Assembly (NCBI GenBank): GCA_900661335.1
Contig: CAACVY010000022.1
Coordinates: forward strand, 1-39,529
Origin: an uncultured bacterium
GTDB lineage: Bacteria; Verrucomicrobiota; Kiritimatiellia; PWTM01
DNA: 39,529 nt
Direction of reading: 5' to 3'
The position numbers were made by a program, and so were the translations under genes. The notes below the pieces were generated by a model. The model did not search any database. It was not told the DNA's origin and was given only the letters and a program-made list of their open reading frames with translations. Numbering within the stretch: the stretch's first letter is position 1; each line of letters begins with the position of its first letter. Below, in pieces: positions 9,349-9,553 of this stretch.

Positions 9349-9553
9349 TCCAATCCTTGGACGCGAAAGCCCTCACGCGCCCCAAGCCTTGGAAACGACG
9401 CGCTCCAGCCCGTCCAATCCTTGGACGCAACGAGCGCCGCGCTGTCTAAACTTTGGAACCAGCGCCAGGGTTTTCGTCCAAACCCCGGAACGAACTACAC
9501 CGCAACCGTCCAAGCCTTGGAAGCCCGGGGCACCAGGTTTTCCAAAGCTTGGA
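9349..9553. repeat. Array A: seven 13-bp pseudo-palindromes at exact 32-bp period
   Basis: Motif starts at 9349, 9381, 9413, 9445, 9477, 9509, 9541: TCCAATCCTTGGA, CCCAAGCCTTGGA, TCCAATCCTTGGA, TCTAAACTTTGGA, TCCAAACCCCGGA, TCCAAGCCTTGGA, TCCAAAGCTTGGA. Confidence 0.93.

What the first reader, a model, noticed from the sequence alone, without database searches (positions are those of the whole stretch)
9349..9553. Seven 13-bp pseudo-palindromes locked to an exact 32-bp period
Motif starts 9349, 9381, 9413, 9445, 9477, 9509 and 9541 differ by exactly 32 nt every time, while the 19-nt spacers are unrelated to each other. A length of 32 bp is close to three helical turns, so all sites would lie on one DNA face. 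That suggests cooperative binding of a dimeric protein (nucleoid/insulator/boundary role) or a serial RNA hairpin array in a 3' region. Exact phase with diverged spacers argues against recent tandem duplication and for spacing being constrained. I vaguely recall similar TTCCAA..TTGGAA strings in spurious ORFs of PVC genomes, but know of no described function.
Basis: partly seen in the sequence, partly recalled or inferred. Interest (0 to 1): 0.82.

Follow-up and report, generated by a model that had tools for sequence, protein, structure and literature searches.

The report
Helix-phased palindrome arrays in Kiritimatiellia bacteria
A 13-letter DNA palindrome is repeated between genes at steps of three turns of the double helix, in dozens to over a thousand places per genome across roughly a quarter of one little-studied bacterial class, which looks like the landing track of an unidentified DNA-binding protein that assembles along one face of the chromosome.

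Summary
The seven-site array at 9349-9553 is confirmed, and a second array (37213-37380) in the same window is a diverged copy of it, including its spacers and with a 4-bp deletion. In 1.2 Mb of the same genome TCCAA-N3-TTGGA is the commonest of all 1024 5-N3-5 palindromes, and the only one that recurs at 31-33 bp (44 neighbours, about 0.02 expected, none at control spacings). Phased sites lie between genes (89 outside, 4 inside). The element is confined to Kiritimatiellia (82 of 289 genomes sampled; up to 1554 pairs per genome). Spacings fall at 2, 3 and occasionally 4 helical turns, spacers are unrelated, changes show no RNA compensation, and one orthologous array keeps 26/26 motif bases but 10/19 spacer bases. 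Best reading: cooperative, same-face binding sites for an unidentified dimeric DNA-binding protein with a genome-wide, probably architectural role. Site geometry matches Lrp/AsnC-type regulators, but that protein's distribution does not single it out. RNA-hairpin, MatP/matS and REP/RAYT readings fail their tests. Convergent-gene specificity is weak. Function and binder remain unproven.

The parts
9349..9553 (.). Array 1: seven TCCAA-N3-TTGGA sites (9349, 9381, 9413, 9445, 9477, 9509, 9541) at exact 32-bp steps with 19-bp unrelated spacers
37213..37380 (.). Array 2: six sites (37213, 37245, 37273, 37305, 37337, 37368); diverged copy of array 1 with spacers in common; 4-bp deletion in the third unit (60 instead of 64 bp between 37245 and 37305)
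9316..9493 (+). Part of array 1 and 33 bp upstream that is duplicated (88%) at 37180-37353
6724..9084 (+). Left neighbour of array 1: TPR-repeat protein (786 aa)
   Evidence: Pfam TPR families; gene call
9989..13387 (-). Right neighbour of array 1: GH78-type alpha-L-rhamnosidase (array 1 is in a convergent intergenic region)
   Evidence: PF17389
33371..36442 (+). Left neighbour of array 2: GH106-type alpha-L-rhamnosidase
   Evidence: PF17132
37475..38665 (-). Right neighbour of array 2: alpha-L-fucosidase-like protein (convergent)
   Evidence: PF01120

Best explanation
Each 13-bp palindrome is the site of a dimeric sequence-specific DNA-binding protein. Two or more sites at steps of about three helical turns (31-33 bp; sometimes two or four) present all dimers on one face of the DNA, so that they bind cooperatively and polymerise or wrap the DNA. 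The arrays are scattered through the intergenic space of the whole chromosome regardless of gene orientation, so the most likely role is genome-wide: a lineage-specific nucleoid-organising or global-regulator protein, not a local operator. Shown: the motif, its phasing, intergenic placement of phased sites, phylogenetic range and strong motif constraint beside free spacers. Inferred: that a protein binds, that it is a dimer, and the architectural role. Best candidate type, not demonstrated: a feast/famine (Lrp/AsnC)-like regulator.
For: Only one of 1024 5-N3-5 palindromes recurs at 31-33 bp, with zero at control spacings. Spacing classes are 31/32/33 with preferences differing by genome, plus 20-22 and 42 bp, with almost nothing at half-turn distances. 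Of 799 sites in phase with an exact site (up to 3 mismatches counted), 72 carry one mismatch and 16 carry two; the CC/GG core tolerates least. Spacers carry no hidden consensus beyond palindromic flanks. 89 phased sites are outside genes and 4 inside. In one syntenic array between own genome and G053 motifs are 26/26 identical and spacer 10/19. The element is class-restricted and repeated up to 1554 pairs per genome with zero reversed-pattern control hits. Geometry matches Lrp-type sites: 13-17 bp inverted repeats, clustered, centre-to-centre two or three turns, same face (PMC2995911). A full-length Lrp (closest PDB relatives include PH1519/FL11) is present in every array-rich genome tested.
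Against: No binder identified. The class-wide Lrp is equally present in most array-free genomes, its helix-turn-helix does not differ visibly between array-rich G117/G322 and array-free G248, and no phased sites lie beside the lrp genes examined. Some arrays are clearly copied as parts of longer repeats (window pair; a ~280-bp family in G394), so part of the abundance could be passive or selfish. In G082 most sites are single and 11 of 18 lie inside genes, so arrays are not obligatory. Array 2 has lost phase once.
Confidence: 0.7

Rival explanations
1. A selfish or passively spread intergenic repeat (REP/MITE-like) mobilised by a transposase, whose palindromes are transposase recognition sites and have no function for the cell.
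For: Patchy presence within families; homologous copies with shared spacers in the window and in G394; intergenic placement.
Against: Most arrays share motifs but not spacers, with no hidden spacer consensus, whereas copying would carry the spacer along. Helical phasing at 2, 3 and 4 turns is not explained. The REP-associated transposase family Y1_Tnp (PF01797) is absent from the window's genus (G000 and three genomes at least 96% complete), G153 and G393, all with arrays. The single orthologous array has conserved motifs beside diverged spacers.
Confidence: 0.12
2. Operators of a large conventional regulon: arrays repress or activate the promoters next to them.
For: Phased multi-site operators are typical of cooperative regulators; some arrays sit within tens of bases upstream of called starts.
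Against: Arrays are as frequent between convergent genes, which have no promoter, as between divergent ones; neighbours are a mixture of families, the largest recurrent one being an abundant 450-550 aa family; no autoregulated candidate found.
Confidence: 0.1
3. A transcribed array of RNA hairpins (terminator-, attenuator- or stability-like) in 3' regions.
For: Palindromes fold; the window arrays fold somewhat better than shuffles (z about -2.7 on the + strand); arrays often start a few bases after stop codons in compact genomes.
Against: Oriented by flanking genes, substitutions that keep G-U pairing (13) are no commoner than those that break it (10), and only 2 of 16 double changes are at symmetric positions; the stem is 5 bp with a 3-nt loop; arrays are as frequent between divergent genes; helical-turn spacing has no meaning for RNA; no Rfam match.
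Confidence: 0.05
4. A DNA-uptake or other whole-chromosome tag (DUS/USS-, KOPS- or matS-like), where single copies already work and arrays are a by-product.
For: In G082, a single-contig genome, the site is about 160-fold over-represented mostly as single copies, 11 of 18 inside genes, roughly evenly spread over the chromosome (p=0.66 over six 0.5-Mb bins).
Against: Palindromic and not strand-oriented (unlike DUS or KOPS, from general knowledge); in the array-rich genomes sites are mostly paired, helically phased and outside genes.
Confidence: 0.03

Closest known systems
Lrp/AsnC (feast/famine) regulator target regions, e.g. archaeal FL11, Ss-LrpB, Ptr2
   Same: 13-bp palindromic dimer site (FL11 co-crystal), clusters of sites, centre-to-centre spacing of two or three helical turns on one face, wrapping by oligomers, possible global role (PMC2995911)
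   Different: Known Lrp targets are degenerate and described at promoters; here sites are nearly perfect, in many intergenic arrays regardless of promoters. The class Lrp is not restricted to array-bearing genomes.
MatP/matS (E. coli Ter macrodomain)
   Same: 13-bp sites repeated on a chromosome and bound by a chromosome organiser (matS repeated 23 times in an 800-kb domain, PMC3330122)
   Different: Sites confined to one macrodomain; here phased arrays over the whole chromosome; no MatP in 18 array-bearing genomes.
REP/BIME repeats with RAYT transposases
   Same: Short palindromes, intergenic, many copies, patchy distribution
   Different: Unrelated spacers, helical phasing, and no Y1 transposase in several array-bearing genomes.
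CRISPR arrays
   Same: Regular period with unique spacers, superficially
   Different: 13-bp degenerate palindrome, typically 2-4 units, dozens to hundreds of loci per genome; not tested for cas genes.

Membership tests
Lrp/AsnC target-site arrays | 13-17 bp imperfect inverted-repeat site | tested here: met
   TCCAA-N3-TTGGA with G/C centre, palindromic flanks
Lrp/AsnC target-site arrays | Clustered sites with centre-to-centre spacing of two or three helical turns | tested here: met
   20-22 and 31-33 bp
Lrp/AsnC target-site arrays | AT-rich site centre | tested here: not met
   Central base is G or C in about 96% of own sites
Lrp/AsnC target-site arrays | An Lrp/AsnC protein encoded in array-bearing genomes | tested here: met
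   PF01037 in every array-rich genome tested, but also in most array-free ones
Lrp/AsnC target-site arrays | Lrp presence or specificity tracks the arrays | tested here: inconclusive
   All 4 genomes without Lrp lack arrays (p=0.11); a second paralogue is commoner with arrays (12/31 vs 3/34, p=0.007, not corrected for phylogeny); recognition helix not visibly different
Lrp/AsnC target-site arrays | An Lrp protein binds the sites | not testable with these tools
   needs EMSA, DAP-seq or ChIP
MatP/matS | MatP encoded in the genome | tested here: not met
   PF06303 in 0 of 18 array-bearing genomes; E. coli control positive
MatP/matS | Sites confined to one chromosomal domain | tested here: not met
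   G082 sites roughly even along the single contig; G394 array gaps as random
REP/RAYT | REP-associated Y1 transposase present | tested here: not met
   PF01797 absent from G000, G007, G020, G053, G153, G393
REP/RAYT | Copies share sequence beyond the palindrome | tested here: inconclusive
   A minority do; spacers in general do not
Structured RNA | Compensatory or G-U-tolerant changes in stems | tested here: not met
   no Rfam family at this place
CRISPR | cas genes and long conserved repeats | not tested
   repeat is 13 bp and degenerate; cas genes not searched

The most novel reading that the evidence does not exclude
Kiritimatiellia possess a lineage-specific chromatin-like system: an unknown dimeric protein that recognises TTCCAANSNTTGGAA, polymerises along one DNA face at three-turn steps at hundreds of intergenic nucleation sites, and thereby organises the nucleoid or insulates neighbouring transcription units.
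Probability: 0.35. Interest if true: 0.88.

Novelty: new variant of a known kind. Interest (0 to 1): 0.72.

Why it matters
No description of this element was found in the paper library, yet it is the commonest palindrome of its form in the array-rich genomes examined and spans many families of one class. It gives a concrete bait (a 32-bp-phased array) to find the binder, and the natural variation (0 to 1554 pairs, 31 against 32 bp, single against arrayed sites in related genomes) makes function testable by comparison. Arrays without promoter preference would be an unusual case of sequence-specific, phased chromosome organisation in bacteria.

Tried and rejected
Rfam scan: only two tRNAs in the window. 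RNA covariation and G-U test: negative. Hidden spacer consensus by orientation EM in nine sets of spacers and in G394: none significant. Convergent-gene enrichment: weak only. Recurrent neighbour gene: none beyond abundant families. Autoregulation of lrp: no phased sites beside ten lrp genes. Lrp recognition helix contrast between array-rich and array-free relatives: none seen. MatP: absent. Y1/RAYT transposase: dispensable. Even spacing of arrays along the chromosome: not different from random (CV 0.90 vs 0.97). Origin or terminus bias in G082: none obvious; dnaA at 1.386 Mb. Viral contigs: 2 matches only. Spurious-ORF homologues: only the window itself.

Full report
WHAT IS THERE. The seven 13-bp palindromes at 9349-9553 are present exactly as described, at steps of 32 bp, with unrelated 19-bp spacers. 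A second array at 37213-37380 has six sites. Alignment shows it is a diverged copy of array 1: 88% identity over 178 bp, spacers included. In the copy a 4-bp deletion in the third unit shifts the phase once. Both arrays lie between convergent genes: a TPR protein and a GH78-type rhamnosidase (array 1), and a GH106-type rhamnosidase and an alpha-L-fucosidase-like protein (array 2).

IS IT MORE THAN CHANCE. The window belongs to a 2.63-Mb draft genome (G000, 68% complete). The two-site pattern with a 19-bp gap occurs 64 times in it and its reversed control never. In 1.198 Mb of its sequence there are 99 exact motifs with distances of 32 (38 times), 31 (6 times) and their sums; about 0.02 phased neighbours are expected. 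In an unbiased scan of all 5-N3-5 palindromes, TCCAA..TTGGA is the only key recurring at 31-33 bp (44 of 44 own; 20 of 20 in G012), and no key recurs at 25-29, 36-40 or 41-43 bp (runs of N in masked stretches apart). It is the most frequent of the 1024 keys (tied for first in G074) in the own genome, in all five array-rich relatives examined and in G082 and G029, but not in G123.

WHERE IT LIES. Phased sites are 89 outside and 4 inside called genes in the own genome, against 4 outside and 12 inside for 29 control palindromes of the same composition (p=9e-10; four genomes together p=4e-14). The gene caller was home-made, so individual starts are uncertain. Own arrays lie between convergent (11), divergent (12) and co-directional (16) genes, only mildly different from intergenic length (p=0.04). 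In compact genomes arrays often begin a few bases after a stop codon.

WHO HAS IT. In 394 genomes of the phylum nearly all matches are in the window's own class; named relatives are mostly Kiritimatiellae, Lentisphaerae and Verrucomicrobia MAGs, so I take the class to be Kiritimatiellia. With spacers of 5-24 bp allowed, 82 of 289 genomes of the class match, control zero, up to 1554 pairs in one genome. Several families have it throughout or nearly so (f1 in 9 of 9), while large families (f4, f5, f11, f14, f19; f12 apart from two matches in one genome) have none. Viral contigs give two matches only.

ANATOMY. The core is TCCAA-N-S-N-TTGGA with a G or C centre in about 96% of own sites; the flanks are palindromic but lineage-specific (TTT..AAA in G012/G065, TCG..CGA-like in the own genome, AAAGT..ACTTT in G177). 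Array lengths are mostly 2-7 units. Spacing is 31-33 bp with genome-specific preference (31 in G012 and G262; 32 in most), with minor classes at 20-22 bp and 42 bp: two, three and four turns. Single cases at 16, 19 and 39 bp were also seen. Unit orientation, judged by the central base, is close to random over the loci examined (235 same, 186 opposite, p=0.02), but in the G262 list units are head-to-tail. Spacers have no significant hidden consensus beyond the flanks. Some arrays are parts of longer copied repeats: the window pair and a ~280-bp family in G394 with identical spacers.

CONSTRAINT. In one syntenic array between own genome (L180:4499) and G053 (L245:10192), where orthologous proteins have a median identity of 54%, all 26 motif bases are identical while 10 of 19 spacer bases are. 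This is a single case. Substitutions in array units show no G-U bias by gene strand (13 against 10) and no symmetric compensation (2 of 16), which argues for double-stranded DNA, not RNA, as the functional form.

HOW IT MOST LIKELY WORKS. The combination of near-perfect inverted half-sites, free spacers and helical-turn spacing is what cooperative same-face binding by dimers produces (inference). A review of Lrp-type regulators describes 13-17 bp inverted-repeat sites, occurrence in clusters, and centre-to-centre spacings of two or three turns on the same face, with wrapping by oligomers (PMC2995911). The own genome encodes a full-length Lrp whose closest solved relatives include PH1519 (entry 2e1c, the FL11 dimer co-crystallised with a 13-bp palindromic site). 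But this Lrp occurs in 61 of 65 genomes tested, with or without arrays; the 4 without it lack arrays (p=0.11); its recognition region is not visibly different in array-free G248; and ten lrp loci have no phased sites. A second paralogue is commoner in array-rich genomes (12/31 vs 3/34, p=0.007, uncorrected for relatedness). The site also departs from the AT-rich centre described for Lrp sites. I therefore say it works like an Lrp-type phased operator but do not file it as one.

ROLE. No orientation class is required, neighbours are a mixture, sites spread roughly evenly along the single contig of G082 and arrays at random intervals in G394. A genome-wide architectural or global role is therefore more likely than a local operator function. 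In G082 the site is about 160-fold over-represented mainly as single copies, 11 of 18 inside genes, so the phased intergenic array may be a derived or intensified use of a widespread site.

WHAT WAS EXCLUDED. MatP is absent from 18 array-bearing genomes. Y1 (RAYT-type) transposases are absent from the window's genus and two other array-bearing genomes. Rfam has no matching family. No paper describing the element was found in the library searched; most subscription journals are not in it.

VERDICT. A real, class-restricted, apparently undescribed family of helically phased palindrome arrays. That it is a protein-binding DNA element is well supported by indirect evidence; which protein and what for remain open.

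Noticed in passing
window 36870-37160 and 9677-9935; L153:6706-7013: A separate dispersed intergenic repeat of about 230-290 bp (67-86% identity) lies upstream of array 2, downstream of array 1, and in at least one other place of the genome, near another array.
   Followed up: partly
L258-L264 (G082): A single-contig relative carries the palindrome mostly as single sites, 11 of 18 inside genes, about 160 times more often than chance; a different use of the same site.
   Followed up: partly
G262: Arrays with a mostly uniform CGA centre, head-to-tail at 31 bp, up to 6 units; a close relative (G248, same genus) has none. A natural experiment on gain or loss.
   Followed up: no
G417: 1554 phased pairs in one 6.7-Mb genome (6% contamination), far above all others.
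   Followed up: no
G394 arrays (L278-L281, L289, L290): Six arrays belong to a ~280-bp copied repeat with near-identical spacers, beside other arrays that share only the motif and AAAACT..AGTTTT flanks.
   Followed up: partly
G020:C9:454155-454367 and G218:C24:34971-35153: The second Lrp paralogue carries an in-frame TAG in G020 and is only a partial match in G218, possibly decaying.
   Followed up: no
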